Source of the DNA: an uncultured Rubritalea sp.
GTDB taxonomy: Bacteria > Verrucomicrobiota > Verrucomicrobiia > Verrucomicrobiales > Akkermansiaceae
NCBI GenBank assembly: GCA_937132085.1
Contig: CAKZNV010000036.1
Coordinates: forward strand, 1-64,000
DNA: 64,000 bases
Reading direction: 5' to 3'
Shown: positions 23,854 to 55,507 of the stretch, in pieces
Numbering within the stretch: the stretch's first letter is position 1
Layout: the number at the start of each line of letters is the position of its first letter
Made by a program: the position numbers and the translations under genes
Notes under the pieces: model-generated
What the model was told of the DNA's origin: nothing
Databases searched by the model: none
The model's input: only the letters and a program-made list of their open reading frames with translations

Positions 23854-24028
23854 CTGTAGTGGCTCAGGACTAAATCTCCGAACTCACACCCTGTAGTCTC
23901 CTTGCGCCCGTTTCAAGCTTGTCATGCGGTGCGCACAATCACCGATAAATTGATTATTTATACATGTGTGATTTCTTGTGGAACTGATTCTTGAGCCTAA
24001 ATTGGCTCAGCCTTCATTCCCTTCTTTT

Positions 24029-27000
24029 ATGAATTCAAATCAACATACTAGCTTATCAAGCTTTTCTAGGAATAACCAGATTCGTAGCTTTCAGCTTCTA
24101 TTGCTCTTCCTGCTTACACTTCAGTCTGCTCACGCAGATCAGGTAGGATGGTGGAAGCTCAATGAAACCACAGGTTCTGTCGCTATTGACTCCAGTGGCA
24201 CAGGTAATAATGGTGCAGTCACCACAGCCTCTAGTGCCTCAGGGAGCCCCAGCTGGGTCAACGATACTACGCGTGGCAAAGTCCTAGCGCTCGATAAGCA
24301 TGGAGATGTTAGAATCGACACCTCCTATCCCTCCCTCACCAATGCTATGTCGATAGCCTTCTGGGTGAAAGGTAACAGCTCACTGAGTAAATCCACAGCC
24401 TTTACCGCAATGGACGGATCGGCTATCCGATTTAGAGCTCAGATCCCAAGAAGAAATCGTGAAGTTCGACTCACCACCACGGCTGGATCACACAGCTATA
24501 ACACGGCTACCACAGATAACCTGAAGCATGAGTGGCGTCACTGGGTGTTCCTTGTCGATGGCACCACGAAAAAATATTCTATTTATCTGAATGGAGTCCT
24601 AGAGAGCAGCGGGAAGTTTGAGGGAGCTACATTTACTTTTTCTGATATCGATACAATACGGATCGGATCAAATCAAGGGAGTGGCCAGTTCTATGATGGC
24701 CGAATGAGTGATTTTAGACTCTACGATCACGCTTTAACATACGCTGAAGTTCAAAATATTTTTGAACCTAAGAATGCAGCGCCTGTGGCGGTAAATGACA
24801 GCTACATCGCTGAGAAGAATACATTGCGCAGCATCATGGCTCCTGGAGTCCTTGGCAACGATAGTGACCAAAACGGGGATACGATTACATCAAAACTCGT
24901 CACTGATGCGCAGAATGGGACTCTTAATCTTGCTGCTGATGGATCATTTACCTACCTTCCTAATGTTGATTTTATAGGCACAGATCAATTCACCTATAAA
25001 GTCAACGATAGCACCGAGGACTCTACCACAGCAACCGTGATAATAACCGTGACAGAGCCTGGCATGAATGGAATCACGATTGAAGAACTTCAGAAAATAT
25101 CGAACGATTTAGGTGTCACCCTCACTATTGACGAGCAGCTCTCACTCTCGGCAATTGTCAAACCGAGTGCATCTACTCAATGGCGCACCGAGGCTGAAGC
25201 TCGGATCAACCAACATCGTAAAGCAGACTTTAATGCAATTATAGTCGATTCCAATGGCGTGCCTGTCGTCGGAGCTAAGGTCGACATCAAACTGCGCAAA
25301 AAACAATTCCGTTTTGGCGGCATCATGAATCTTAAAAAATTTGCAGGCGAAACAGCAATGGATGTCACAACAGATAAATACAAATCTTTGTTTCTTAAGT
25401 ATTATGATCACGCTGGGCTTGATAACGGACTTAAGCCCAAACTTCGTGCAGGTAATGAAGATCTCCTTCCCGCTTACTTCACCTGGCTAGCTGAAAATAA
25501 GATGGAAACCAGAGGGCACCTCTTGATGTGGCCAGGTGGCACTCATATGTCCACCAATATCGACCTGCTAGTCACCAGTATTGAAAATGAAGCAGATCTC
25601 GTAGTAATAGAGACTCTTAAAACCCAACTCCGCACTGCAATCAACGCTGAGATCACTGGATGGGCCGCGTCATGGGATGTCACCGAGTGGGATGTAGTCA
25701 ATGAGCTGCTTAGCAACCACCGAGTGCAAGATATCCTTGGTCAGAGTGAAATTGTTTCTTGGTTTAATCTAGCAAGAAACAATGCGGTGCAATCCGATGC
25801 AAAGCTTCTCATTAACGAGTTCCAGATCATCTCCGCTAAGTCTACAGGAAATTCCTACACAGCAAGATCAGCAGACTACAAAGCGGAGATAGACTTCCTA
25901 GTTAACAATAATGCCGAATTAGATAAAATCGGATTTCAAAGTAGATATAAATTTGATCACCCAGATCCGGCTGTGCTGTATTCCCGCATGCAGGACTTTG
26001 CTGCTTATAATCTCCCAATGGTTGGCACCGAGTTTGAGATTATAGATCTTGCTCCCTTCTCTCCATCAGAAAATGAACGTGCTGAGATGACAGAGGAAAT
26101 CATGACAATCTACTATAGTCACCCCCAGATGGAAGGGCTATTCAGCTGGGACTTTCTCACTTCTGATAGCGTAGGCGCTCTGGTAAACGGGGATGGCACC
26201 CCGAAACTTAACGGTCTGGTTTGGTATTATCTAAATCGTATTCGCTACAACACAGAGACTACTACCACGACTGATGCTTCTGGAGCGATCACCTTCAATG
26301 GATACAAAGGGGAATATGATCTAGAAGTCACGATTAATGGGCAAAGCTACCTTACACAAGCCGACCTTACTGCTGATGGTCTGGTAGAGATAGCTATCGT
26401 ATCCACTAGTATAGGAACCATACTCCATACCAGTAATACTATAGAGGATGCACACTGTCGGGAATCAATTCCGGACTCGAACTTTGGCAGTGACACACGG
26501 CTACAGCTCCGTTCAGATCCCCTCTCATCCTTCACTCGCCACGTCTTTCTCAAGTTTGATATCAGCGGCCTTCAAGGAGCGGCTACCAACACTAGATTAC
26601 GTCTTTATTCAGATGATCTGACCAGTGTAGTTGAAGCCTATGCAGTGCACGATAATACATGGAAGCAAAAGAGCATTACATGGAACAATAAACCCACACT
26701 AGGTAACTTGATTGGCTCTGCAACAGGAAGACCATCTACGAGCTTGGATATAGATCTCGGCAATTATGTGACCAGTGACGGACTCATCACGATCGCTTTG
26801 AAATCTACTGAAAACACCATGTTCAAGCTATTTTCCAGTGAGAGTATTTCACCACCACAACTTCTGATCACCTCAGACACGAGCCTAGCTCCTACGGGGC
26901 AATCCGATAGTTATTCACTAAAGCAAAACGGAATAATTCAGCAACCTGTCGCAGGGGTGCTGACGAATGATACGAACCTAGGCAGTGGTAATATGACAGC

Positions 27001-27550
27001 GACTCTGATACAGGATGTCAGCTTCGGCAGTCTTAACCTTCTAACCGATGGCTCATTCACCTACACTCCTGATGCGGGATTTTGGGGCTGGGACTCGTTC
27101 ACCTACCAAGCTACTAACTCAGCTGGATCATCCACTACTCAGACCGTCTCGTTGGGAGTGGCACGTAATTTTATCGATACTGATAACGATGGACTAGAAG
27201 ATAGCTGGGAGATTACTCATGTAGGTGACCTGACAACAATGGCTAGAACTACCGACACTGATGGCGATGGCCATCTGGATATTGACGAACACTTATCCAA
27301 GACGGATCCTAATAATCCGGCAGACAAGTTTCACGTGATTGGGCTCACCTCTGTAGCAGCTGGTCAATTGACGCTCAAGTGGAGCAGCAAGGCAGGCCTG
27401 AGGTATAGAGTTCAGAGATCAGCCAATCTAACAATAGACAGCTGGGTGACTGAACTAGATCAGATTCAAGCAAAAGGCAATACCACGACCATCAACCTCA
27501 ATTCGACAAGAGATCGTAATTTCTACCGAGTCCAAGTTATTGATCCTTAG
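24029..27550 (+). CDS. Modular secreted GH10 xylanase
   Basis: About 1173 residues from the ATG at 24029, preferred over an upstream GTG because the signal peptide follows. Order: signal peptide, LamG/concanavalin-like domain (about 35-235), cadherin-like repeat (GVLGNDSDQNGD...), GH10 barrel (about 385-770), a DNRLRE/CBM96-like domain (HVFLKFDIS), a second cadherin-like repeat, thrombospondin type 3 calcium repeats (DTDNDGLEDSWE, DTDGDGHLD) and a small C-terminal beta domain. In GH10 the acid/base is Glu559 (WDVVNE) and the nucleophile Glu668 (GTEFEI). It probably attacks beta-1,4-xylan outside the cell. It stands alone. Confidence 0.88.
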   Translation: MNSNQHTSLSSFSRNNQIRSFQLLLLFLLTLQSAHADQVGWWKLNETTGSVAIDSSGTGNNGAVTTASSASGSPSWVNDTTRGKVLALDKHGDVRIDTSYPSLTNAMSIAFWVKGNSSLSKSTAFTAMDGSAIRFRAQIPRRNREVRLTTTAGSHSYNTATTDNLKHEWRHWVFLVDGTTKKYSIYLNGVLESSGKFEGATFTFSDIDTIRIGSNQGSGQFYDGRMSDFRLYDHALTYAEVQNIFEPKNAAPVAVNDSYIAEKNTLRSIMAPGVLGNDSDQNGDTITSKLVTDAQNGTLNLAADGSFTYLPNVDFIGTDQFTYKVNDSTEDSTTATVIITVTEPGMNGITIEELQKISNDLGVTLTIDEQLSLSAIVKPSASTQWRTEAEARINQHRKADFNAIIVDSNGVPVVGAKVDIKLRKKQFRFGGIMNLKKFAGETAMDVTTDKYKSLFLKYYDHAGLDNGLKPKLRAGNEDLLPAYFTWLAENKMETRGHLLMWPGGTHMSTNIDLLVTSIENEADLVVIETLKTQLRTAINAEITGWAASWDVTEWDVVNELLSNHRVQDILGQSEIVSWFNLARNNAVQSDAKLLINEFQIISAKSTGNSYTARSADYKAEIDFLVNNNAELDKIGFQSRYKFDHPDPAVLYSRMQDFAAYNLPMVGTEFEIIDLAPFSPSENERAEMTEEIMTIYYSHPQMEGLFSWDFLTSDSVGALVNGDGTPKLNGLVWYYLNRIRYNTETTTTTDASGAITFNGYKGEYDLEVTINGQSYLTQADLTADGLVEIAIVSTSIGTILHTSNTIEDAHCRESIPDSNFGSDTRLQLRSDPLSSFTRHVFLKFDISGLQGAATNTRLRLYSDDLTSVVEAYAVHDNTWKQKSITWNNKPTLGNLIGSATGRPSTSLDIDLGNYVTSDGLITIALKSTENTMFKLFSSESISPPQLLITSDTSLAPTGQSDSYSLKQNGIIQQPVAGVLTNDTNLGSGNMTATLIQDVSFGSLNLLTDGSFTYTPDAGFWGWDSFTYQATNSAGSSTTQTVSLGVARNFIDTDNDGLEDSWEITHVGDLTTMARTTDTDGDGHLDIDEHLSKTDPNNPADKFHVIGLTSVAAGQLTLKWSSKAGLRYRVQRSANLTIDSWVTELDQIQAKGNTTTINLNSTRDRNFYRVQVIDP

Positions 27551-37786: not shown

Positions 37787-38371
37787 TTATGAGACTAGAA
37801 AGTGGCTCCAGTCTTCGAATTCATAGCTATTTTTCAGAATCGCAGTGATAGGCACGGAACGGGGCTCGAATGGCTTACGAATCAGCTCTAGTCCAGCTTC
37901 CTTCGGAGTCTTATCCGCCTTCTTCTGGTTCACCTTACGGCAAGACAGCACACAGTTTTCCCAGCTATCTTTACCACCACGAGACACAGGGATGATGTGG
38001 TCAATGTTACCTTCACTGGGCCTTAGATTCTTACCAGTGTATTGACATTTCCCGCTATCTCTTAGCCAGATGTTCCGTGAGTTAAGCTTCGGCCTATGCA
38101 TCGGCACCTGAGCATATCTACACAGCACTATCACGGAAGGAACCCGCACTACACCGTCTGGCACACCGACTGATAGATCACCAACACGCACAGCGAGATC
38201 TCTCCATTCTGCCCACTTTACAGGCACCATCCAGTCGCGTGACTGGATATCCAGCCCCGTAGCAGCATCGGTAGCCATCTGCGCAAATGCCTGCGCAGGC
38301 GTAGTGATAGATATTGCCTGCCAGTTCCGATTCAGGACTAGCACGACATTTTTATGGATTACATTTTTCAT
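37787..38371 (-). CDS. HNH endonuclease next to tRNA array
   Basis: 194 residues. The HNH fold is at about 105-165: KCQYTGKNL (one Cys of the usual CxxC replaced by Thr), NIDHIIPVSRGGKDSWENCV with the catalytic His and Asn, and CRKVNQKKAD. The N-terminal ~95 residues (VLVLNRNWQAI...) are typical of a stand-alone HNH family found in many bacteria. It is the last gene on the strand of the tRNA array, after the 115-residue gene. HNH genes recur near tRNA arrays in phages and mycobacteria, so the linkage is probably meaningful. Confidence 0.88.
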   Translation of the reverse strand: MKNVIHKNVVLVLNRNWQAISITTPAQAFAQMATDAATGLDIQSRDWMVPVKWAEWRDLAVRVGDLSVGVPDGVVRVPSVIVLCRYAQVPMHRPKLNSRNIWLRDSGKCQYTGKNLRPSEGNIDHIIPVSRGGKDSWENCVLSCRKVNQKKADKTPKEAGLELIRKPFEPRSVPITAILKNSYEFEDWSHFLVS

Positions 38372-38917: not shown

Positions 38918-38993
38918 TGGTCGGCTTGGCAGGGATCGAACCTGCAACTCTCTGGGTAAAAACCAGATACTCTACCAGTTGAGTTACAAACCG
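38918..38993 (-). tRNA. tRNA-Lys(UUU)
   Basis: Acceptor CGGTTTG/CAAGCCG, A73 and encoded CCA. Anticodon arm TCTGG-TTTTTAC-CCAGA gives anticodon UUU. T arm GCAGG-TTCGATC-CCTGC. Fully canonical cloverleaf. Confidence 0.93.
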
Positions 38994-39004
38994 TTGTTAA
39001 AAAT

Positions 39005-39107
39005 TGGCAGAACCTTGAGGACTTGCACCCCATGCCACAATTGGCACTCATCGTTTAGCAAACGAGTCCGGCACGCTTGTCCGGCACGCTTGTCCGGTTA
39101 AGATTCT
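39005..39107 (-). tRNA. tRNA-Ser(GCU) with duplicated D-loop segment
   Basis: Acceptor AGAATCT/AGGTTCT, G73, encoded CCA. Anticodon loop TTGCTAA gives GCU. Class II variable arm TGCCA-ATTG-TGGCA. T loop is TGCAAGT. The D region contains a 13-nt unit (ACAAGCGTGCCGG) twice in tandem, so the gene is 103 nt and the D arm cannot be standard. Confidence 0.8.
39068..39097. repeat. 13-bp tandem duplication in tRNA-Ser D arm
   Basis: CCGGCACGCTTGT occurs at 39068-39080 and 39081-39093, followed by a third CCGG (39094-39097). Confidence 0.95.
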
Positions 39108-39115
39108 AGAGAAAA

Positions 39116-39189
39116 TACCTACGGTAGGAGTCGAACCTACAACATACTGATTCTAAGTCAGCCTTCTCTACCAGTTGGAATACGTAGGC
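39116..39189 (-). tRNA. Class I tRNA with anticodon UAG (Leu-type codon)
   Basis: Acceptor GCCTACG/CGTAGGT (G1-U72), A73, no encoded CCA. Anticodon arm GCTGA-CTTAGAA-TCAGT gives UAG, which reads CUA (Leu). The variable loop is only 5 nt, unlike all normal tRNA-Leu. T arm GTAGG-TTCGACT-CCTAC is canonical; the D stem has a mismatch. True charging identity uncertain (Arg-like body). Confidence 0.75.
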
Positions 39190-39199
39190 GTTTAAAAAT

Positions 39200-39275
39200 T
39201 GGCATTCCTGCTGGGATTCGAACCCAGGTCGTTCGGCTGAAAACCGAGTGTGTTAAGCCTCTACACTACAGGAAC
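39200..39275 (-). tRNA. tRNA-Glu(UUC)
   Basis: Acceptor GTTCCTG/CAGGAAT, G73, encoded CCA. Anticodon loop TTTTCAG gives UUC; the top anticodon pair is a mismatch. D arm GTGT-AGAGGCTTA-ACAC is Glu-like. Confidence 0.9.
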
Positions 39276-39285
39276 ACATTAAAGA

Positions 39286-39360
39286 TACACCTGGAAGGAC
39301 TCGAACCTTTAACCTCCAGATTCGTAATCTAGCGCTCTAATCCAATTGAGCTACGAGTGC
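39286..39360 (-). tRNA. tRNA-Arg(ACG)
   Basis: Anticodon arm CTAGA-TTACGAA-TCTGG gives ACG. Acceptor GCACTCG/CAGGTGT has a C6-A67 mismatch, and the T stem AAAGG/CCTTC has an A-C mismatch. No encoded CCA. Canonical T loop TTCGAGT. Confidence 0.85.
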
Positions 39361-39381
39361 GTTATCTTGTTAGTGAAAAAA

Positions 39382-39466
39382 TACGAAATGGAAGATTTGA
39401 ACTCCTCGGCGTCCTACCCACTGTTTTTTGCCAACGGTTTAGAAAACCGACGTGGGAACATCTCGC
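39382..39466 (-). tRNA. Degenerate class II-like tRNA, anticodon UCU
   Basis: Acceptor GCGAGAT/ATTTCGT with A73 and T loop TTCAAAT define the ends. The anticodon hairpin CGGT-TTTCTAA-ACCG would give UCU. A long insert pairs TTGGC with GCCGA like a variable arm, and CCCAC can pair GTGGG around the whole centre. No normal D arm can be drawn. The Leu-like acceptor conflicts with an Arg anticodon. Confidence 0.55.
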
Positions 39467-39572
39467 TTAGATATAAAAAATTCTGTGGTAGCCGCAAAAA
39501 GGCGCAAGATTCACAAAACCTTCATAATAAATCAATTTTGTGGCTTTTGTGCTTCTTTGTGGCAAAAAATAT

Positions 39573-39646
39573 TGGAGCAGCATCTCGGATTTGAACCGAA
39601 ATCCTCTGGGTGGAAACCAGACATTCTACCATTGAACTAATGCTAC
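39573..39646 (-). tRNA. tRNA-Gly(UCC)
   Basis: Acceptor GTAGCAT/ATGCTGC, U73 (typical for Gly), encoded CCA. Anticodon arm TCTGG-TTTCCAC-CCAGA gives UCC. T loop TTCAAAT. Confidence 0.92.
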
Positions 39647-39654
39647 TTTAAAAT

Positions 39655-39728
39655 TGGTTCGAGTTAGAGGTTATGCTCCCCTGCTCTCTGCATGTAAAAC
39701 AGACGTGCTACTATTACACTAAACTCGA
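39655..39728 (-). tRNA. tRNA-Val(UAC) with atypical T loop
   Basis: Acceptor TCGAGTT/AACTCGA, A73, encoded CCA. D arm GTGT-AATAGTA-GCAC. Anticodon arm TCTGT-TTTACAT-GCAGA gives UAC. T arm AGGGG-AGCATAA-CCTCT lacks the usual TTC start of the T loop. Confidence 0.85.
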
Positions 39729-39742
39729 ATTTATGATGAATA

Positions 39743-39829
39743 TGGTAGGTTTGGTGAGATTCGAACTCACTAGGTCTTGCGACGATTGGGTTACAGCCAA
39801 GTCCAGCCCTCCAGCTCTGGCGCAAACCT
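39743..39829 (-). tRNA. tRNA-Tyr(GUA)
   Basis: Acceptor AGGTTTG/CAAACCT, A73, encoded CCA. D arm CCAG/CTGG. Anticodon loop CTGTAAC gives GUA. Class II variable arm GTC-GCAA-GAC. T arm GTGAG-TTCGAAT-CTCAC canonical. Confidence 0.92.
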
Positions 39830-39848
39830 ACATATTACTATAAATGAA

Positions 39849-39919
39849 TCCTCCTGCACGGTAATGCTCCGCGGTCTCTCGGTTATCAACCGAGTGCTCT
39901 ACTATTGAGCTACAGGAGA
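39849..39919 (-). tRNA. tRNA-Ile(GAU) with atypical T loop
   Basis: Acceptor TCTCCTG/CAGGAGG, A73, no CCA. D arm GCTC-AATAGTA-GAGC. Anticodon arm CTCGG-TTGATAA-CCGAG gives GAU. T arm CGCGG-AGCATTA-CCGTG, the same AGCAT loop type as tRNA-Val. Confidence 0.87.
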
Positions 39920-39922
39920 CAG

Positions 39923-40379
39923 TAAATTTAGCATTTATGATTTAGCATGTTGTCATTTGAGAGGCTATTCGGTAGCGTTCAGTATGGATAAAGATGCAAT
40001 GAAACAACGCTCTAAAGAATTTTCTCTAAGAACCTTGAAAGTCGTTACTGCGATGCCTCAAACTACAGAGGCAAAAGTTATTGCACATCAAATTGCTAAA
40101 TCAGGAACCTCGGTAGGCGCAAACTATAGAGCCGCTTGTAGAGCTCGAAGCACTAAAGAGTTTATAGCCAAACTAGGCACTGTTCTTGAAGAAACAGATG
40201 AAACTGCTTTTTGGCTAGAGATCATTATTGAAGCGAATATTTTACCAGCAAATAGAATTAAAACTCTACTAACAGAAGCTGATGAACTATGTGCTATATT
40301 CTACAAAACTATCGAATCTGCTAGAAACAAGTAATCCATTTTCTAAATGATCACATGCTAAATGTTCCATGTTAAATGA
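39923..40379 (+). mobile_element. Element carrying a four-helix-bundle gene, flanked by inverted repeats
   Basis: The left end contains TTTAGCATGTTGTCATTT. The reverse complement of the right end reads TTTAGCATGTGATCATTT, an 18-bp imperfect inverted repeat. Both ends recur in the ORF-less element at 40461-40570. The element separates tRNA-Ile from tRNA-His. It has the opposite orientation to the array. I infer a small mobile or intervening-sequence element. Confidence 0.65.
39984..40334 (+). CDS. Four-helix-bundle protein (23S rRNA IVP family)
   Basis: 116 residues from the ATG at 39984. It contains KEFSLRTLKVVTAMPQTTEA, AHQIAKSGTSVGANYRAACR and EETDETAFWLEIIIEA, the signature of the S23/four-helix-bundle family (TIGR02436 type). 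Members are encoded inside 23S rRNA intervening sequences and as scattered stand-alone genes. It is the only plus-strand gene inside the tRNA array and lies within inverted repeats. An upstream alternative start adds nine residues. Confidence 0.9.
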   Translation: MDKDAMKQRSKEFSLRTLKVVTAMPQTTEAKVIAHQIAKSGTSVGANYRAACRARSTKEFIAKLGTVLEETDETAFWLEIIIEANILPANRIKTLLTEADELCAIFYKTIESARNK

Positions 40380-40382
40380 AAA

Positions 40383-40455
40383 TTCCCTCGCTCGGGATCG
40401 AACCGAGATATCCACGATCACAGTGTGGGATTTTAACCGGTTAAACTACAAAGGA
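40383..40455 (-). tRNA. tRNA-His(GUG)
   Basis: Acceptor TCCTTTG/CGAGGGA, A73, no CCA. The nucleotide at -1 is C, not the G usual for tRNA-His. Anticodon loop CTGTGAT gives GUG, with a mismatch at 31-39. T arm CTCGG-TTCGATC-CCGAG canonical. Confidence 0.87.
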
Positions 40456-40460
40456 GGTCT

Positions 40461-40570
40461 TAAATTTAGGATTTATGATTTAGCACGTTGTCATTTACTT
40501 GCTTACAACCCTTCAGGTTTGGATAACGCTTGCGAAAATGATCACATGCTAAATGCTCCTTGTTAAATGT
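40461..40570. mobile_element. ORF-less miniature copy of the four-helix-bundle element
   Basis: The left end TAAATTTAGGATTTATGATT and the right end AAATGATCACATGCTAAATG repeat those of the 39923-40379 element with one or two changes. Only about 40 unrelated bp lie between, so the gene is missing. It sits between tRNA-His and tRNA-Thr. Confidence 0.65.
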
Positions 40571-40575
40571 TAATA

Positions 40576-40647
40576 TGGAGCCAACGGTGAGGCTTTCACT
40601 CACATGTTCCGATTTACAAGATCGGTGCACTTATCTGCCACGGTGGC
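40576..40647 (-). tRNA. tRNA-Thr(UGU) with reduced D arm
   Basis: Acceptor GCCACCG/CGTTGGC (one C-U mismatch), U73, encoded CCA. D arm is only GCA-GATAAG-TGC with no GG pair. Anticodon arm CCGAT-CTTGTAA-ATCGG gives UGU. T arm GTGAG-TGAAAGC-CTCAC. Confidence 0.83.
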
Positions 40648-40658
40648 TTTTGAAAGAA

Positions 40659-40730
40659 TACTTCTAACAGGACTCGAACCTATAACCTAGGGATTATGAG
40701 TCCCCCGCTCTACCATTGAGCTATAGAAGT
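40659..40730 (-). tRNA. tRNA with CAU anticodon (Met or Ile2), copy 1
   Basis: Acceptor ACTTCTA/TAGAAGT perfect, A73, no CCA. D arm GCTC-AATGGTA-GAGC. Anticodon arm GGGGA-CTCATAA-TCCCT gives CAU. T loop TTCGAGT. Could be elongator Met or, after lysidine modification, Ile. Confidence 0.9.
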
Positions 40731-40734
40731 TTTA

Positions 40735-40809
40735 TGGTGGCTCTGCGCAGATTCGAACTGCGATAGTCTGGCTCAAAACCAGATGTAATGACCATTATAC
40801 GACAGAGCG
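40735..40809 (-). tRNA. tRNA-Gln(UUG)
   Basis: Acceptor CGCTCTG/CAGAGCC with a C1-C72 mismatch, A73, encoded CCA. Anticodon arm TCTGG-TTTTGAG-CCAGA gives UUG. T arm CGCAG-TTCGAAT-CTGCG. Confidence 0.9.
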
Positions 40810-40822
40810 GTTACTAATTAAA

Positions 40823-40898
40823 TGGAGGCTTCTGTGGGTAACGCTCCCACCTACGACTGTTTTGCAGACAGCGCCGTTCACTTGCTCGGTCAAAAGCC
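40823..40898 (-). tRNA. tRNA-Cys(GCA) with atypical T loop
   Basis: Acceptor GGCTTTT/AGAAGCC, U73 (Cys identity), encoded CCA. D stem CCG/CGG. Anticodon loop CTGCAAA gives GCA. T arm GTGGG-AGCGTTA-CCCAC, the third AGCRTWA-type loop. Confidence 0.88.
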
Positions 40899-40908
40899 TT
40901 ATTAAATA

Positions 40909-40986
40909 TGGTCGGGAATGCTGGATTCGAACCAACGGCCTCAGCAATCCAAATGCCGCGCTCTGACCAAACTGAGCTAATTCCCG
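40909..40986 (-). tRNA. tRNA-Pro(UGG)
   Basis: Acceptor CGGGAAT/ATTCCCG perfect, A73, encoded CCA. D arm GCTC/GAGC. Anticodon arm CGGCA-TTTGGAT-TGCTG gives UGG. T arm GTTGG-TTCGAAT-CCAGC. Fully canonical. Confidence 0.94.
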
Positions 40987-40998
40987 TGATCTTAAAAT

Positions 40999-41073
40999 TG
41001 GCACTTCTACATGGCTCCGCCCCATGAACTCCGGGTTAACAGCCCAGCGTGATACTCATTTCACTATAGAAGT
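40999..41073 (-). tRNA. tRNA-Asn(GUU) with atypical T loop
   Basis: Acceptor ACTTCTA/TAGAAGT, G73, encoded CCA. D arm GTGA-AATGAGTA-TCAC. Anticodon arm CTGGG-CTGTTAA-CCCGG gives GUU. T arm CATGG-GGCGGAG-CCATG with a non-standard loop. Confidence 0.87.
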
Positions 41074-41079
41074 AGATAT

Positions 41080-41154
41080 TGGTTGCGAGGATGGGAATTG
41101 AACCCACGGGAAACGGCTTATGAGACCGTCTTGAATACCAGCATTCACCTCGCT
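41080..41154 (-). tRNA. tRNA with CAU anticodon, copy 2 (A1-A72 mismatch)
   Basis: Acceptor AGCGAGG/CCTCGCA pairs except position 1-72 (A-A), A73, encoded CCA. Anticodon arm ACGGT-CTCATAA-GCCGT gives CAU. T arm GTGGG-TTCAATT-CCCAT. An unpaired 1-72 resembles initiator tRNA, but the three G-C anticodon pairs of initiators are missing. Confidence 0.85.
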
Positions 41155-41178
41155 ATAAAAATTATGTTAGAAAAAATA

Positions 41179-41254
41179 TGGTGGAAACAATGGGACTTGC
41201 ACCCAACTCACACTACTTGCAAGGCAGCGTCGCCACTATGGAACATGTGTCCCC
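41179..41254 (-). tRNA. tRNA-Ala(UGC)
   Basis: Acceptor GGGGACA/TGTTTCC contains the G3-U70 pair that defines alanine identity; A73 and encoded CCA. Anticodon loop CTTGCAA gives UGC. T loop TGCAAGT, as in the array tRNA-Ser. Confidence 0.88.
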
Positions 41255-41298
41255 ACGTTGAAAAATGTTTATAAGGTTGAGAAGGACACCATTATAGA

Positions 41299-42131
41299 TA
41301 GGAACTTGCGCAGGAGTATCGCACAGGCTGCTTGCCTGGCCTTCCCTGCTCTTCCACTTAGCTGAGCACATGAGTTGGCTCACACTAAGTATTCCTACAT
41401 GACTGCTTTTGTTAGAGGAGTAGCTATTCTCCTATCCTGACACACTATTCAATATTCTACCTACCGTCTGCCTTGCGAGCAGTGAAGAAGCGCTAGCCTC
41501 ACCGTGCGGTTTCCTATCAATCCGCAGAAACCTTGCGAGTTTCATTGGATCCTAATTACTCTCAAAGGAGCTTAGGACTTAAGCCATTTTCATGAGCCAG
41601 TGGACACGTCTTTGCGTTTAAGTCAAACACCGGGATTCGCACCCAGGGCTAAACGATTAGAGATCGTCTGCTCTACTACTGAGCTATATTTGCAGTTTCC
41701 TTCTGTAAGATGTGCATGTCCGGTAGCTTCATTGCCTTTTGAGCAACAAAATACTACACACCTCTTATCATCACTGCTGTCACAGCGATCACGGTCTTTA
41801 AGACTTGAGCCTTTTTAGAACTCTCACCTCTAGACTACCATCAAGCACTTAGCGATCACACCTCGCACTTCTATGGCTACCCTTCATCCTCAGATGTCGA
41901 TGTTTGCGTAGAGACTCCGTAGGTTGCTATACCTACCTAGCAGTTGAACATTTGTCATCACTGCTAGCAGCATCTCCCACCTTCCATCATAGCCGCCAGT
42001 CAGGTATTACCCGCTCTGACACTTCTGGACTAGGTTTGCTTAGTTGTCCCAGTATTACACTAGGCGGACAAACAGGAATGTTGCCCCTTTACGCACCTTT
42101 CAGCACGCGTATCTCATGACGCCAAGCCGCC
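41299..42131 (-). ncRNA. Large structured RNA, GOLLD/ROOL-like candidate
   Basis: About 830-900 nt inside the tRNA array with no credible protein gene. Hairpins on the minus strand include GAAAC-UCGCAAG-GUUUC (41527-41543), CUGC-UCGCAAG-GCAG (41468-41482), UUGC-UCAAAAG-GCAA (41732-41746), CCUAGU-GUAAU-ACUGGG (42048-42064), UAGCAGU/ACUGCUA (41938-41966), GUAGGU/ACCUAC (41919-41936), AUCGCUG/CAGUGAU (41770-41789), UACGC/GCGUA (42090-42111) and a closing helix at 41299-41307 with 41387-41397. A tRNA (41622-41693) is embedded. Size, place in a tRNA array and the embedded tRNA recall GOLLD; ROOL or a new class is equally possible. No model search could be run. Confidence 0.5.
41622..41693 (-). tRNA. 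tRNA-Arg(UCU)-like, inside the large RNA region
   Basis: Body GCAAATA/TGTTTGA (position 1-72 mismatched), D arm GCTC-AGTAGTA-GAGC, anticodon arm GACGA-TCTCTAA-TCGTT giving UCU but with C instead of U at position 33, T arm CTGGG-TGCGAAT-CCCGG, no CCA. Possibly a structural tRNA mimic rather than a translating tRNA. Confidence 0.7.
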
Positions 42132-42141
42132 ATTTTCATTC

Positions 42142-42181
42142 AGAATTTAAATCTCACATCTACACATGAGATCTAAATTCT
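42142..42181. repeat. Inverted repeat between large RNA and tRNA-Trp
   Basis: AGAATTTAAATCTCA and TGAGATCTAAATTCT are inverted with one mismatch (15 bp, 10-nt loop). The word AAATTTAGATTTAG style resembles the ends of the four-helix-bundle elements. It could be an element remnant or an RNase III-type processing stem. Confidence 0.7.
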
Positions 42182-42189
42182 AAATGAAA

Positions 42190-42258
42190 CACGTAGTCTA
42201 GGTGCTGCCCCTAGCACGAAAGGTTTTGGAGACCTTCCTGCACGCTGATGCCCTACGT
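42190..42258 (-). tRNA. tRNA-Trp(CCA) with reduced D arm
   Basis: Acceptor ACGTAGG/ACTACGT (last pair mismatched), G73, no encoded CCA. Anticodon arm AAGGT-CTCCAAA-ACCTT gives CCA. D arm GCA-TCAGCG-TGC is short, like the array tRNA-Thr. T arm CTAGG-GGCAGCA-CCTAG. First tRNA of the array in the direction of transcription. Confidence 0.85.
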
Positions 42259-42261
42259 ATT

Positions 42262-43452: not shown

Positions 43453-44901
43453 ATGAAGAGACTACTTTCAGCTATTACTCTAACCGTCGCAAGTCTTGCT
43501 AGCTTCTCCCAAGCTCAAGACTCTCCGGAAAAACGCACCAAACCAAACATCGTTCTCTTTTTTATCGATGATCTAGGCTGGGCAGACATCGGAGCCAACG
43601 GCTCTAAGTTTCACGAAACTCCTAACATAGATAAACTAGCCAATAATGGAGTGAATCTGAAAAACTCCTACTCAGCGCATGCTGTCTGCTCTCCCACTAG
43701 AGCTGCACTCATGAGTGGTAAAGCTCCGCAGCGAGTAGGCATCACTCAGTGGATCCACCAGCCATCACACATTCACCTAAAGTCTGAAGAATTCACTATC
43801 GCTGAAGCATTCCAATCAAACGGTTACACTACAGGATACATCGGTAAATGGCACCTCGGAGAGAAAGATGAGCAGCTACCTACCGCTCAAGGCTACGATT
43901 GGAAAAAAGCTGTCAACAGGGCTGGCCAACCCGGCAGCTACTTCTTCCCTTACATTGGAAGACAGAATAGAGGTGCATTCTGGAATGTCCCAGACCTAGG
44001 TGATGGCAAGCAAGGAGACTACCTAACAGATGCTCTGACTGATAAGGCTTTGACCTTTATTGACGAAAACAAAGACAGCCCATTCTTCCTCACATTCGCT
44101 CACTACGCCGTCCACACCCCCATCCAGGCGCCTAAAGATCTCGTAGAGAAATACAAAGCCAAAAAGCTCGAACTTTTTGGAGACACTAAATCTCCAAAAT
44201 CTACTCAGCGCTACAATACTCAGAACAAAGACCGTCAGGACAACCCGACCTACGCAGCTATGATGGAGAGCCTCGATACCAACATCGGACGCATTCTCAC
44301 CAAGTTAGAACAAAACAATCTGTTAGAAAACACCATCATCATTATCACCTCAGACAATGGCGGACTATCACACCTCAGAAACCCAGGCGTCACCTCTAAC
44401 AGACCACTCAAATCTGGCAAAGGCTGGAACTACGAAGGCGGAATCAGAGTTCCACACATCATTTCATGGAAAGGCATCATTCAGCCAGCCATCAACGACA
44501 CTCCTACCATCACCATGGATATCTACCCTACTCTGTTAGACCTCGCAGGCCTAGAGCTAAAGCCACAACAGCACCTAGATGGCATGTCTATTAAGTCGAC
44601 TTTATTCGAAGATGATCAGCCTAGCGACAAGCTAAAGAATCGTTTCCTAGCGTGGACCTACCCACACAATCACGGATCTGGCCACAAGCCATCACACGCG
44701 ATCCGAAAAGATGGCTGGAAGCTTATCCACTTTGAAAACGGCGAAACTTACGAACTCTACAATCTCAACGACGACATCGGTGAAAGCAAAAACCTAGCGA
44801 AAGAACACCCTCAAAAAGTGAAGACGCTTGATGCGCTTTTAATGCAATGGATTAAAGACACCACACCGATACAACCGATCTTCCAGAAAGCCAAAAAATA
44901 A
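43453..44901 (+). CDS. Secreted sulfatase (arylsulfatase A type)
   Basis: 482 residues with a signal peptide ending near SQA. The formylglycine motif is CSPTR (Cys79, Arg83), metal-binding Asp39-Asp40 lie in FFIDDLGW, and the downstream IGKWHLGE, HYAVHTPIQAP and TSDNGG motifs are all present. It removes sulfate esters, probably from marine polysaccharides. The needed FGE maturase is not in the window. Its TAA stop overlaps the next ATG by 1 nt, so it is translationally coupled to the first membrane paralogue. Confidence 0.93.
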   Translation: MKRLLSAITLTVASLASFSQAQDSPEKRTKPNIVLFFIDDLGWADIGANGSKFHETPNIDKLANNGVNLKNSYSAHAVCSPTRAALMSGKAPQRVGITQWIHQPSHIHLKSEEFTIAEAFQSNGYTTGYIGKWHLGEKDEQLPTAQGYDWKKAVNRAGQPGSYFFPYIGRQNRGAFWNVPDLGDGKQGDYLTDALTDKALTFIDENKDSPFFLTFAHYAVHTPIQAPKDLVEKYKAKKLELFGDTKSPKSTQRYNTQNKDRQDNPTYAAMMESLDTNIGRILTKLEQNNLLENTIIIITSDNGGLSHLRNPGVTSNRPLKSGKGWNYEGGIRVPHIISWKGIIQPAINDTPTITMDIYPTLLDLAGLELKPQQHLDGMSIKSTLFEDDQPSDKLKNRFLAWTYPHNHGSGHKPSHAIRKDGWKLIHFENGETYELYNLNDDIGESKNLAKEHPQKVKTLDALLMQWIKDTTPIQPIFQKAKK

Positions 44902-53044: not shown

Positions 53045-55396
53045 CTATCTGACTCGGATCACTCCATTTGAGTCAGATCCACCACCAGTTTTCACTTTAG
53101 CACGCAGCTGATACTTCGCACCCTTCTTGTATTTCTTAAGCTTCAGAGTGTAGATATTATCAGAATCTTGGCCACCAGTGACGCCATCATGCTCGTCTTT
53201 AGAGATGACTACGCCGTCTTCTAACAGCTCAGCATTTTTTACTAACAGCTTGTGTAGACCGCTCTGATAATCGAACTCAACACTCAGTGATCCTGCTGCT
53301 TTGATAGCCTCGTTGAGATCAAATTCCACAGTCTTAAATTCTTCGCTCAACTCACCAGATTTCCATCCACCTACTTTTAGGTTTCTTGGAGCCTTAGCAG
53401 AGATAGATGCGCTGTGAAGAGTTCCGTGCATTCCTCTTGGAAGAACGTCACCGAGCCTCGTGAGAGGACAAACCATCTGTTTACCGATAGATTGGATCAA
53501 CTTGCCATTCACATACAGTGATGTCTTTCTCCTTTCACCTACGAGAGTGATCTCTACTTTTTCGCCGACAGGCACTTGATAGTCGAACAGTAACACATCT
53601 GGATTATAAGAAGTCAGAGGGTCAAAGCCATACGCTTGATTCGCTCTCACACAGGCAAAGCCTCTCTTCTTAGTCACCTTCTTGGTCTTCTTATCAGTAA
53701 TTTCTCTCTCTAGGTCTACATAAAATGCAGCTAGCTTAGAAGACACTAGTATCTCATCACCTGCAACATCATGATGACGAGTAAGGCTAAACTTCGCTGT
53801 CCAGGGCCACTCTAGATTTTCTGATTTCAATCCGAGCTCAACCTTGCTGTTAGCGATGAAGATTCTCTCTTTCTCTAAACTCCAAACCTTAGAGCCAACC
53901 ACGTCTTTAATTGCGTCTCTCTTAAACAGATTCACTTTAGGCATGATAGCCTCATAAGACTTAGCATTTTTCATGTTAGCTTCATAGCTAATCGGCTTGA
54001 AGTCAGCACCCTTCTTGCTAGCCCACAGTTTCTCACTCATTACCGCCATTGAAGGAGCAGTCAGTCTTGCGATTTCGTTCCAGGTATAGCCACTAGGTCC
54101 GAAATCATTCCATACGTGTAGTTTGCCACCCATCAGACCTGGGTCACTGTCATCAAGCATTCCTTCTGGCTTACCAGAAAACTGCTTCGGCGTCCAAGTG
54201 TCGTAGATGAACTTATTATTCACCCCGTAATACGGAGCTCCAGGGACGATGTATGTGTAAAAGTGTGATGAGTTCACCACCTTGTAGCCAGCCTTCACTT
54301 TATTCTTCGCATCGGCAGTTTCCCACATATCGATGATCACGGTAGTGTCTGGCTCAGTTGTTCCAGGCATGTGTTCATAACCAGACCAGGTTCTAACAGT
54401 CTTACCATGCTTCTCTCTGATATACTTATTGAGGTGGTTTATATACTGACGGAAGCTCTCGCCTAGGGCGTCTCTATCCTTCTTATTTTTGATCAGGTTT
54501 AAACGATATTCATCCGTTCCAATATGCACTAACTCAGAATCAAACAATGGGCAGACTTCGTCCCAAATATCTTCCATAAACTTGATCGCATCAGGATTTC
54601 TAAGATCCAAATAAGCTAAGCCAAATCCACCACGATTGATCTCTGGGTGAGCTAGCTCTGGACGATACGTAGTAAAGGCAAGAGAGTGGCCGGGTGAGTC
54701 GATCTCTGGAACGATGACCACTCCGTGAAGCTTCGCAAAATCTTGCAACTCACGAATCTGTTTAAAGGTATAGTGACCATCCTTGGACGCTAGTCCTGGA
54801 AACTTCTTAGATTCCAATCTGTAGCCTGGGTATCTGCCCCATGAGTTATCGTTGAGGTGAAGGTGCAGCTCATTCATCTTATAGAATCCCATCATTCTGA
54901 TCCAATCCTTGAGACCATCAACAGGGATGAACTTACGCCCCACATCAAGCAAAAGTGATCTAACTGGATACTTAGGAGCATCATTAATCACACCTTTAGG
55001 CAACTCACCAAGACTCATCATTTGAATCAGCGTTCTTGTTCCATAGTAAAGCCCAGATGCTGAGCTAGACTTGATCGTCACCTTATCAGAAATCGTAATC
55101 TGGTATGATCCATCAACCATACTTCTGTTCCCATCAGCGCCTAATTCCAAGTGAAGCACACCAGCCTCACCCTTTTGCACCATCTCGCCCTCTAGCATCT
55201 TCACCAGAGGAGCTAATTCAGTCTGTTTTTCTGCAGCTACAGAAATAGACCCAACTTTAAAACTCAAGGTCCCCTGACTAGCCTTCCAGCTTCCGACAGT
55301 TGGGATGACTCCTTCCACACCCTGAGGTCTTTCTTGAGCGGAACATGCCATACCGAGCATGCCTAAACCTAGTATCATTTTTGAAATAATCTTCAT
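53045..55396 (-). CDS. Secreted GH20 beta-N-acetylhexosaminidase
   Basis: 783 residues from the ATG at 55396 with signal peptide (cleavage near CSA). A GH20 N-terminal domain precedes the catalytic barrel with LLLDVGRKFIP, HLHLND, PEIDSPGH and the catalytic pair Asp295-Glu296 in HIGTDEYR; VWNDFG follows. A C-terminal lectin-like beta region comes last. It would release GlcNAc/GalNAc from chitin-like or glycoprotein glycans. It stands alone. Confidence 0.92.
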   Translation of the reverse strand: MKIISKMILGLGMLGMACSAQERPQGVEGVIPTVGSWKASQGTLSFKVGSISVAAEKQTELAPLVKMLEGEMVQKGEAGVLHLELGADGNRSMVDGSYQITISDKVTIKSSSASGLYYGTRTLIQMMSLGELPKGVINDAPKYPVRSLLLDVGRKFIPVDGLKDWIRMMGFYKMNELHLHLNDNSWGRYPGYRLESKKFPGLASKDGHYTFKQIRELQDFAKLHGVVIVPEIDSPGHSLAFTTYRPELAHPEINRGGFGLAYLDLRNPDAIKFMEDIWDEVCPLFDSELVHIGTDEYRLNLIKNKKDRDALGESFRQYINHLNKYIREKHGKTVRTWSGYEHMPGTTEPDTTVIIDMWETADAKNKVKAGYKVVNSSHFYTYIVPGAPYYGVNNKFIYDTWTPKQFSGKPEGMLDDSDPGLMGGKLHVWNDFGPSGYTWNEIARLTAPSMAVMSEKLWASKKGADFKPISYEANMKNAKSYEAIMPKVNLFKRDAIKDVVGSKVWSLEKERIFIANSKVELGLKSENLEWPWTAKFSLTRHHDVAGDEILVSSKLAAFYVDLEREITDKKTKKVTKKRGFACVRANQAYGFDPLTSYNPDVLLFDYQVPVGEKVEITLVGERRKTSLYVNGKLIQSIGKQMVCPLTRLGDVLPRGMHGTLHSASISAKAPRNLKVGGWKSGELSEEFKTVEFDLNEAIKAAGSLSVEFDYQSGLHKLLVKNAELLEDGVVISKDEHDGVTGGQDSDNIYTLKLKKYKKGAKYQLRAKVKTGGGSDSNGVIRVR

Positions 55397-55507
55397 GTTG
55401 GTAGTATGAGCTACCCACACATCAAAACAACTTCATTTATCAGGATGTCATAATAATTTTCAATCTGTCACAACAATCTCCAAACCTCATGAAAAGAGCA
55501 ACTCACT

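What the first reader, a model, noticed from the sequence alone, without database searches (positions are those of the whole stretch)
41299..42131. Candidate giant structured RNA (GOLLD/ROOL-like) inside the tRNA array
An 830-900 nt stretch between tRNA-Trp and tRNA-Ala has no credible ORF but at least ten perfect 4-7 bp hairpins on the array strand. Three hairpins carry the same heptaloop type (UCGCAAG twice, UCAAAAG once), readable as a bulged U plus C-G-closed GNRA-like loop. Two others share a GUAAUAC element. A tRNA-Arg-like gene with C33 is embedded. GOLLD RNAs (about 800 nt) are known next to tRNAs in phages and prophages, sometimes with tRNA in a variable region, and ROOL also sits in phage tRNA clusters. 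This could be a divergent GOLLD, a ROOL, or a new class.
Basis: partly seen in the sequence, partly recalled or inferred. Interest (0 to 1): 0.8.

Follow-up and report, generated by a model that had tools for sequence, protein, structure and literature searches.

The report
Cage-forming GOLLD RNA carrying tRNA
The stretch encodes a complete GOLLD RNA, a giant bacterial RNA known to self-assemble into hollow cages, inside a tRNA array of a Verrucomicrobiales bacterium; comparing relatives shows that the loop thought to lie inside the cage nearly always carries a tRNA, a tRNA anticodon arm or a ribosome toxin-target loop, which suggests a testable role as molecular bait.

Summary
Window 42131 to 41274 (minus strand, 858 nt) is a full-length GOLLD RNA. 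Rfam GOLLD matches the 3' domain end to end above the gathering score (153.1 bits, cut-off 150, E 6.5e-41). The 365-nt 5' domain, which Rfam does not model, is conserved in 14 Verrucomicrobiales genomes and covaries (63 of 113 pairs change on both sides; shuffles 37, slid controls at most 27). The embedded tRNA-Arg(UCU), with C33, sits exactly in the variable linker, which in the published cryo-EM cage points into the cavity. The RNA is a new member of a known family, in a chromosomal tRNA array with no phage structural genes recognised nearby.

The comparison adds something new. In 17 of 18 readable linkers of the order the content is a tRNA (10), a D-arm plus anticodon arm (4) or a 23S sarcin-ricin 12-mer (11 of 12 bases in one) plus an anticodon-like hairpin (3). 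Linker tRNAs often cannot decode normally: stop anticodons 2/10 against 0/341 array tRNAs. Anticodon-like hairpins also recur in phage GOLLDs. The neighbourhood in relatives is rich in RNA-repair genes. My preferred, unproven mechanism is caged bait for tRNA- and rRNA-cutting nucleases (about 0.35).

The parts
41274..42131 (-). GOLLD RNA, full length, 858 nt
   Evidence: Rfam hit over the 3' domain plus conserved, covarying 5' domain
41767..42131 (-). GOLLD 5' domain, 365 nt, not covered by the Rfam model
   Evidence: alignment A1 of 14 relatives; 113 pairs, 63 with change on both sides, 94.8% of cells paired
41274..41766 (-). GOLLD 3' domain including linker
   Evidence: RF02032 153.1 bits, model 1-416 of 416; 78 of 107 pairs covary in 18 relatives
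41617..41708 (-). variable linker between first 3'-domain hairpin and conserved AACGCAAAG
41622..41693 (-). tRNA-Arg(UCU) with C33 inside the linker
   Evidence: ARAGORN, Rfam tRNA 48.7 bits, anticodon loop
42132..42198 (-). near-perfect long hairpin directly upstream of the GOLLD 5' end; possible RNase III processing signal (inference)
   Evidence: read directly; picked up as a long stem by weak sub-threshold microRNA-model matches
38918..42259 (-). tRNA array containing the GOLLD gene
37787..38371 (-). HNH endonuclease gene beside the array, conserved next to arrays in relatives
   Evidence: Pfam HNH_4 E 2.2e-12; homologues in 10 of 19 GOLLD loci and most TROVE loci

Best explanation
Identity (shown, about 0.97): a full-length GOLLD RNA with a covarying 5' domain, a tRNA-bearing linker and the Rfam 3' domain, encoded on the array strand of a chromosomal tRNA array. 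Mechanism (inferred, about 0.35): the RNA is transcribed with the array and cut out, assembles into the multimeric cage seen by cryo-EM for another GOLLD, and holds its linker in the cavity. The linker presents a tRNA or anticodon arm, and in some relatives a sarcin-ricin-type loop, as bait or sensor for nucleases that cut tRNAs or 23S rRNA, sparing the working tRNAs and ribosomes. Linker anticodons change between relatives because the nucleases differ. Steps shown: family identity, structure, linker position, recurrent anticodon-arm and SRL content, RNA-repair genes beside the arrays of relatives. Steps inferred: transcription, cage formation here, binding of nucleases.
For: Rfam GOLLD full-model match; 5' and 3' domains covary. 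Linker content in 18 relatives: 10 full tRNAs, 4 D-arm plus anticodon arms, 3 SRL plus anticodon-type hairpins, 1 none. Seven of 8 linkers without full tRNA hold a U33/R37 seven-base hairpin, 0.51 expected in shuffles, P 1e-8. In 37 phage linkers where ARAGORN calls no tRNA, 15 have such a hairpin and 1 has the mirror form. The linker anticodon stem covaries at 4 of 4 pairs. The SRL 12-mer occurs only twice in the Roseibacillus persicicus genome, in 23S rRNA and in the GOLLD linker. Linker tRNAs are enriched in non-decoding features, 5/10 against 19/341, P 2e-4, with 2 stop anticodons against 0. Close pairs differ at the anticodon: GTA/TCT in an otherwise similar body; two phage linkers of 56 nt differ only in the triplet, GAT/AAG. 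TROVE, RtcB, RlaP, RNA ligase, Band_7 and HNH genes flank these arrays in relatives. Cage with linker inside: PMC12286853.
Against: No direct evidence that a nuclease acts on any GOLLD, that this RNA is expressed, or that it forms a cage. The window's own linker tRNA could be an ordinary or decaying gene. The window lacks the RNA-repair genes in its array (only HNH); its genome has RlaP and RtcB on other contigs. Linkers share ancestry, so the shuffle P values overstate independence, and the hypothesis was formed on the same Verrucomicrobiales data. SRL occurs in only one lineage of three related genomes. About half or more of the phage linkers show no anticodon-like hairpin, and one Verrucomicrobiales linker has none.
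Confidence: 0.35

Rival explanations
1. Passenger: the linker is merely a tolerant insertion site. tRNA genes from the array drop into it, replace one another and decay; anticodon arms and D-arms are remnants with no function.
For: Arrays supply tRNA genes; linker tRNAs show decay-like features (C33, A33, 8-base loop, stop anticodons); a pseudo-tRNA without detected expression was reported inside mycobacterial GOLLD (PMC6582537).
Against: Decay would not be expected to keep the anticodon arm rather than other parts in four related loci with intact stem and U33/A37 but changed triplet; it does not explain the SRL 12-mer nor anticodon-like hairpins in phage linkers without a tRNA; the anticodon stem covaries.
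Confidence: 0.33
2. Carrier or maturation device: the cage protects or releases a functional linker tRNA for decoding.
For: The window linker folds into a cloverleaf and 5 of 10 linker tRNAs have ordinary anticodon loops.
Against: Two linker tRNAs have stop anticodons, one a four-base anticodon, and seven linkers lack the T-arm needed for a working tRNA; one linker has neither.
Confidence: 0.12
3. Translation mimic: the anticodon arm or SRL contacts ribosomes, factors or modification enzymes, for example to hold ribosomes, rather than baiting nucleases.
For: Pull-down of ribosomes with GOLLD is cited in PMC12286853; the SRL is also a binding site for translation factors (general knowledge).
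Against: Changing anticodons are not needed for ribosome binding, and RNA-repair genes rather than ribosome-hibernation genes flank the arrays.
Confidence: 0.15
4. Not a GOLLD: an unrelated array spacer that reaches the cut-off by chance or through the embedded tRNA.
For: The score is only 3 bits over the gathering threshold.
Against: E 6.5e-41; the tRNA is an insertion not modelled by Rfam; relatives score up to 165 bits; covariation in both domains.
Confidence: 0.02

Closest known systems
GOLLD RNA (Rfam RF02032); env-38 GOLLD, 833 nt, solved as a 14-mer cage (PMC12286853)
   Same: Whole 3' domain model, variable linker, separate 5' domain, length about 0.8-0.9 kb, tRNA neighbourhood
   Different: Verrucomicrobiales chromosome with no recognised phage structural genes nearby; tRNA in linker; homology of this 5' domain to that of env-38 not tested
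GOLLD in Mycobacterium tRNA arrays (PMC6582537; Morgado 2020, known only from its citation)
   Same: Inside a large tRNA array, an HNH endonuclease gene in the array, a (pseudo) tRNA inside the GOLLD gene
   Different: Other phylum; here RNA-repair genes also flank arrays of relatives
Phage GOLLDs of viral contigs L083-L203
   Same: Same 3' end motif and linker position; several linkers carry tRNA or anticodon-like hairpins
   Different: Most linkers AT-rich with motif ATCCACAACACAAA and no full tRNA; this 5' domain pattern not found in viral contigs
ROOL RNA
   Same: Large phage-associated RNA near tRNA islands that forms a cage (PMC12286853)
   Different: No ROOL model match in the window

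Membership tests
GOLLD (RF02032) | Covariance-model score at or above the gathering threshold | tested here: met
   153.1 bits against 150, full model 1-416, E 6.5e-41
GOLLD (RF02032) | Conserved, covarying 3' domain | tested here: met
   78 of 107 pairs change on both sides, 94.5% of cells paired, 0 of 500 shuffles as high
GOLLD (RF02032) | Structured, less conserved 5' domain | tested here: met
   63 of 113 pairs with double change; but homology to the published 5' domain was not tested, and genus g21 of the same order has a different 5' domain
GOLLD (RF02032) | Variable linker, sometimes with tRNA | tested here: met
   tRNA-Arg(UCU) at model positions 60-130
GOLLD (RF02032) | Location near tRNA genes | tested here: met
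GOLLD (RF02032) | Location in phage or prophage (frequent, not universal) | tested here: not met
   Only an HNH gene with phage homologues of known role among the 10 neighbouring proteins tested against PHROGs; no structural gene or integrase. Not a defining feature, since mycobacterial array GOLLDs are accepted members
GOLLD (RF02032) | 14-mer cage assembly | not testable with these tools
   needs cryo-EM or mass photometry
ROOL | Match to the Rfam ROOL model | tested here: not met
   no match in all-Rfam scans at gathering threshold and at E 1

The most novel reading that the evidence does not exclude
GOLLD cages are RNA decoy devices: their interior linker displays exchangeable copies of toxin targets (anticodon arms with switching triplets, and the 23S sarcin-ricin loop), in bacteria as part of tRNA-array and RNA-repair islands and in phages as counter-defence against tRNA-cutting host nucleases.
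Probability: 0.3. Interest if true: 0.93.

Novelty: new member of a known kind. Interest (0 to 1): 0.66.

Why it matters
GOLLD has had no known function since its discovery, and the 2025 structures showed an empty cage with an unresolved interior linker. If that linker consistently holds tRNA anticodon arms or a sarcin-ricin loop, the cage has a content that can be tested directly. It would tie GOLLD to RNA damage and repair, explain why it travels with tRNA arrays and phages, and give a cultured species (Roseibacillus persicicus KCTC 12988) in which to test it.

Tried and rejected
Searches of viral contigs for the 5'-domain motif found nothing real; the one hit, L052, is coding sequence of a phage. 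A search for SRL plus GCAAAG in viral contigs gave ten hits, all chance matches outside GOLLD. A phylum-wide draw added no GOLLD outside the window's own family (2 of 388); the exhaustive family search found 6 of 260, and genus searches added none. Arrays with TROVE but no GOLLD were searched with a model of the first 3' hairpin and lack it. Weak microRNA-family matches at 42121-42201 are just the long hairpin. Promoter and terminator scans were close to chance. The GUAAUAC element was dropped as not conserved. ROOL was rejected for lack of any match. The paper on GOLLD in mycobacterial arrays (PMC7549688) is not held in the library.

Full report
WHAT WAS CHECKED. The stretch lies on the minus strand of a tRNA array. 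An all-Rfam scan of the window gives one non-tRNA hit above threshold: GOLLD, RF02032, 41766 to 41274, 153.1 bits against a gathering score of 150, the whole model, E 6.5e-41. The genome holds one GOLLD.

FULL LENGTH. The Rfam model covers only the 3' domain. Nineteen of 387 genomes of the order have a GOLLD. Reading upstream of the hits shows that 14 of them share a second conserved block of 365-399 nt that starts with GGCGGC.TGGCGTC; in the window its upstream end is 42131. Its alignment folds into 113 pairs, 63 of them with changes on both sides. Controls: shuffled 36.8 with sd 3.0, 0 of 500 as high; slid structures at most 27; 94.8% of cells paired against at most 46% when slid. The 3' domain in 18 sequences gives 78 of 107 such pairs against 54.0 shuffled and at most 30 slid. 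The structure was derived from the same alignments, so cell percentages are favourable by construction, but the double changes are not explained by that. Four loci of another genus (g21) have the GOLLD 3' domain with a different upstream sequence, so the order has at least two kinds of 5' domain.

WHO HAS IT. The pattern scan of named genomes returned 13 loci, all Verrucomicrobia, mostly metagenome-assembled genomes and one isolate, Roseibacillus persicicus KCTC 12988. In the phylum draw no genome outside the family had a hit. In the family 6 of 260 genomes have one. Most GOLLDs lie among tRNA genes. In genus g15 the flanking metabolic genes (isopropylmalate synthase, HAD hydrolase, PNP phosphorylase, ketopantoate reductase) are shared among loci, so the array is at one chromosomal place there. 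The proteins flanking the window array are mostly ordinary metabolic proteins, with no phage structural gene or integrase among those tested.

THE LINKER. The published cage (PMC12286853) is empty apart from the disordered linker, which points inwards, and that paper notes tRNAs sometimes in it. Here 18 linkers can be read. Ten hold a tRNA callable by ARAGORN, with anticodons TCT, TCA, an eight-base loop, CTG, GTT, GTA, TCT, TCT, TCC and TTA. Four (g21) hold a D-arm and an anticodon arm but no T-arm, with loops CT-CGT-AA, CT-ACG-AA, CT-GAT-AA and CT-AAG-AA on nearly constant stems. Three hold AGTACGAGAGGA (one with a single change), the universal core of the 23S sarcin-ricin loop, followed by an anticodon-type hairpin. 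One holds neither. The anticodon stem is part of the consensus fold, with covariation at all four pairs and 92% of cells paired.

IS THAT CHANCE? Seven of the 8 linkers without a full tRNA have a hairpin of at least four pairs with a seven-base loop, U33 and purine 37; 0.51 are expected from dinucleotide shuffles, P 1e-8. These linkers are related, so the effective number is smaller. An independent set is phage GOLLDs from viral contigs (41 distinct linkers). Four have a tRNA called by ARAGORN. Of the other 37, 15 have such a hairpin with at least five pairs, and only 1 has the mirror image (purine 33, U37), a control that keeps stem and loop size but reverses the loop. Two of the 15 look like full tRNAs that ARAGORN missed. 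Thirteen phage linkers on one stem carry loops TT-AAG-GT, TT-GAT-GT, TT-TGA-GT and TT-GCG-AT, and two 56-nt linkers differ only inside the triplet. The number of such close pairs is small (P 0.007). For the SRL, 0.00013 exact matches are expected in the 18 linkers and 2 are seen, though the motif was recognised after the fact. In R. persicicus the 12-mer occurs twice in the genome, once in 23S rRNA and once in the linker.

DO LINKER tRNAs DECODE? Linker tRNAs have a non-U33 base, a stop anticodon or a four-base anticodon in 5 of 10, other tRNAs of these loci in 19 of 341 (P 2e-4). Stop anticodons: 2 of 10 against 0 of 341 (P 7e-4). The window's C33 fits this picture.

NEIGHBOURS. Beside arrays of relatives lie genes for TROVE/Ro60-like protein, RtcB ligase, RlaP, an ATP-dependent RNA ligase, Band_7/SPFH protein and a stand-alone HNH protein. 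The window has only the HNH gene (37787-38371); its genome has RlaP and RtcB on other contigs. Strong TROVE hits and GOLLD co-occur in genomes more than expected (9 of 19 GOLLD genomes against 24 of 368 others, P 4e-6, not corrected for kinship). Of 20 TROVE loci without GOLLD, 19 have at least four tRNA genes nearby, and a GOLLD model finds nothing in them. So the island exists without GOLLD, and GOLLD is an optional part of it. The Salmonella rsr-yrlBA-rtcBA RNA-repair operon is switched on by cut tRNAs, and its tRNA-like Y RNA has been suggested to compete with an anticodon nuclease (PMC7790460).

MECHANISM. The best reading I can give is bait or sensor for tRNA- and rRNA-cutting nucleases, held in the cage. 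It accounts for the changing anticodons, the stop anticodons, the loss of the T-arm, the SRL, the repair genes and the presence in phages, where tRNAs with altered anticodon loops are proposed to evade host anticodon nucleases (PMC10264068; compare PMC11555353; abstracts seen). None of the functional steps is shown. The main rival is that the linker is a tolerant site in which tRNA genes land and decay.

NOVELTY. The object itself is a new member of a known family, with a known neighbour type (tRNA array) and a known linker content (tRNA). What I did not find in the papers I could search is the regular anticodon-arm content of linkers that lack a full tRNA, the sarcin-ricin loop, and the link to RNA-repair islands. 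The library lacks most subscription papers, so earlier mention cannot be excluded.

Noticed in passing
window 39926-40377 and 40464-40568: A 23S-rRNA-intervening-sequence-type four-helix-bundle ORF (39957-40334) framed by 33-nt inverted repeats sits between tRNAs; an ORF-less copy of the same repeats follows 0.5 kb on. IVS-type elements seem to insert in tRNA-array spacers.
   Followed up: partly
window 42132-42198: A long near-perfect hairpin abuts the GOLLD 5' end; similar inverted repeats lie just upstream of GOLLD in L028, L031 and L020. Possible RNase III processing sites.
   Followed up: no
L053-L072: Verrucomicrobiales TROVE genes of the 480-550 aa type sit beside tRNA arrays, usually with HNH and often RlaP, RtcB, Band_7: a tRNA-array RNA-repair island that exists with or without GOLLD.
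   Followed up: partly
window 37787-38371; L021-L037; L053-L072: The most constant protein gene beside these arrays is a stand-alone HNH endonuclease with a Cas9/IscB-like HNH motif; mycobacterial GOLLD arrays also have an HNH gene (PMC6582537).
   Followed up: partly
L021, L022, L024, L025: Genus g21 GOLLDs join the standard 3' domain to a quite different, highly conserved 5' region starting ACGGGCC.TCGG.
   Followed up: no
L083-L203: Many phage GOLLD linkers share the motif ATCCACAACACAAA.CTT before the linker hairpin; its role is unknown.
   Followed up: no
L034 9667-9735; L020 685-759: Two linker tRNAs have stop anticodons (TTA and TCA), the only ones among 351 tRNAs called in these loci.
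   Followed up: partly
window 53045-55420, 43453-44901, 23978-27550: Polysaccharide-degradation genes (GH20, sulfatase, GH10 with cadherin-like repeats) around the array.
   Followed up: no
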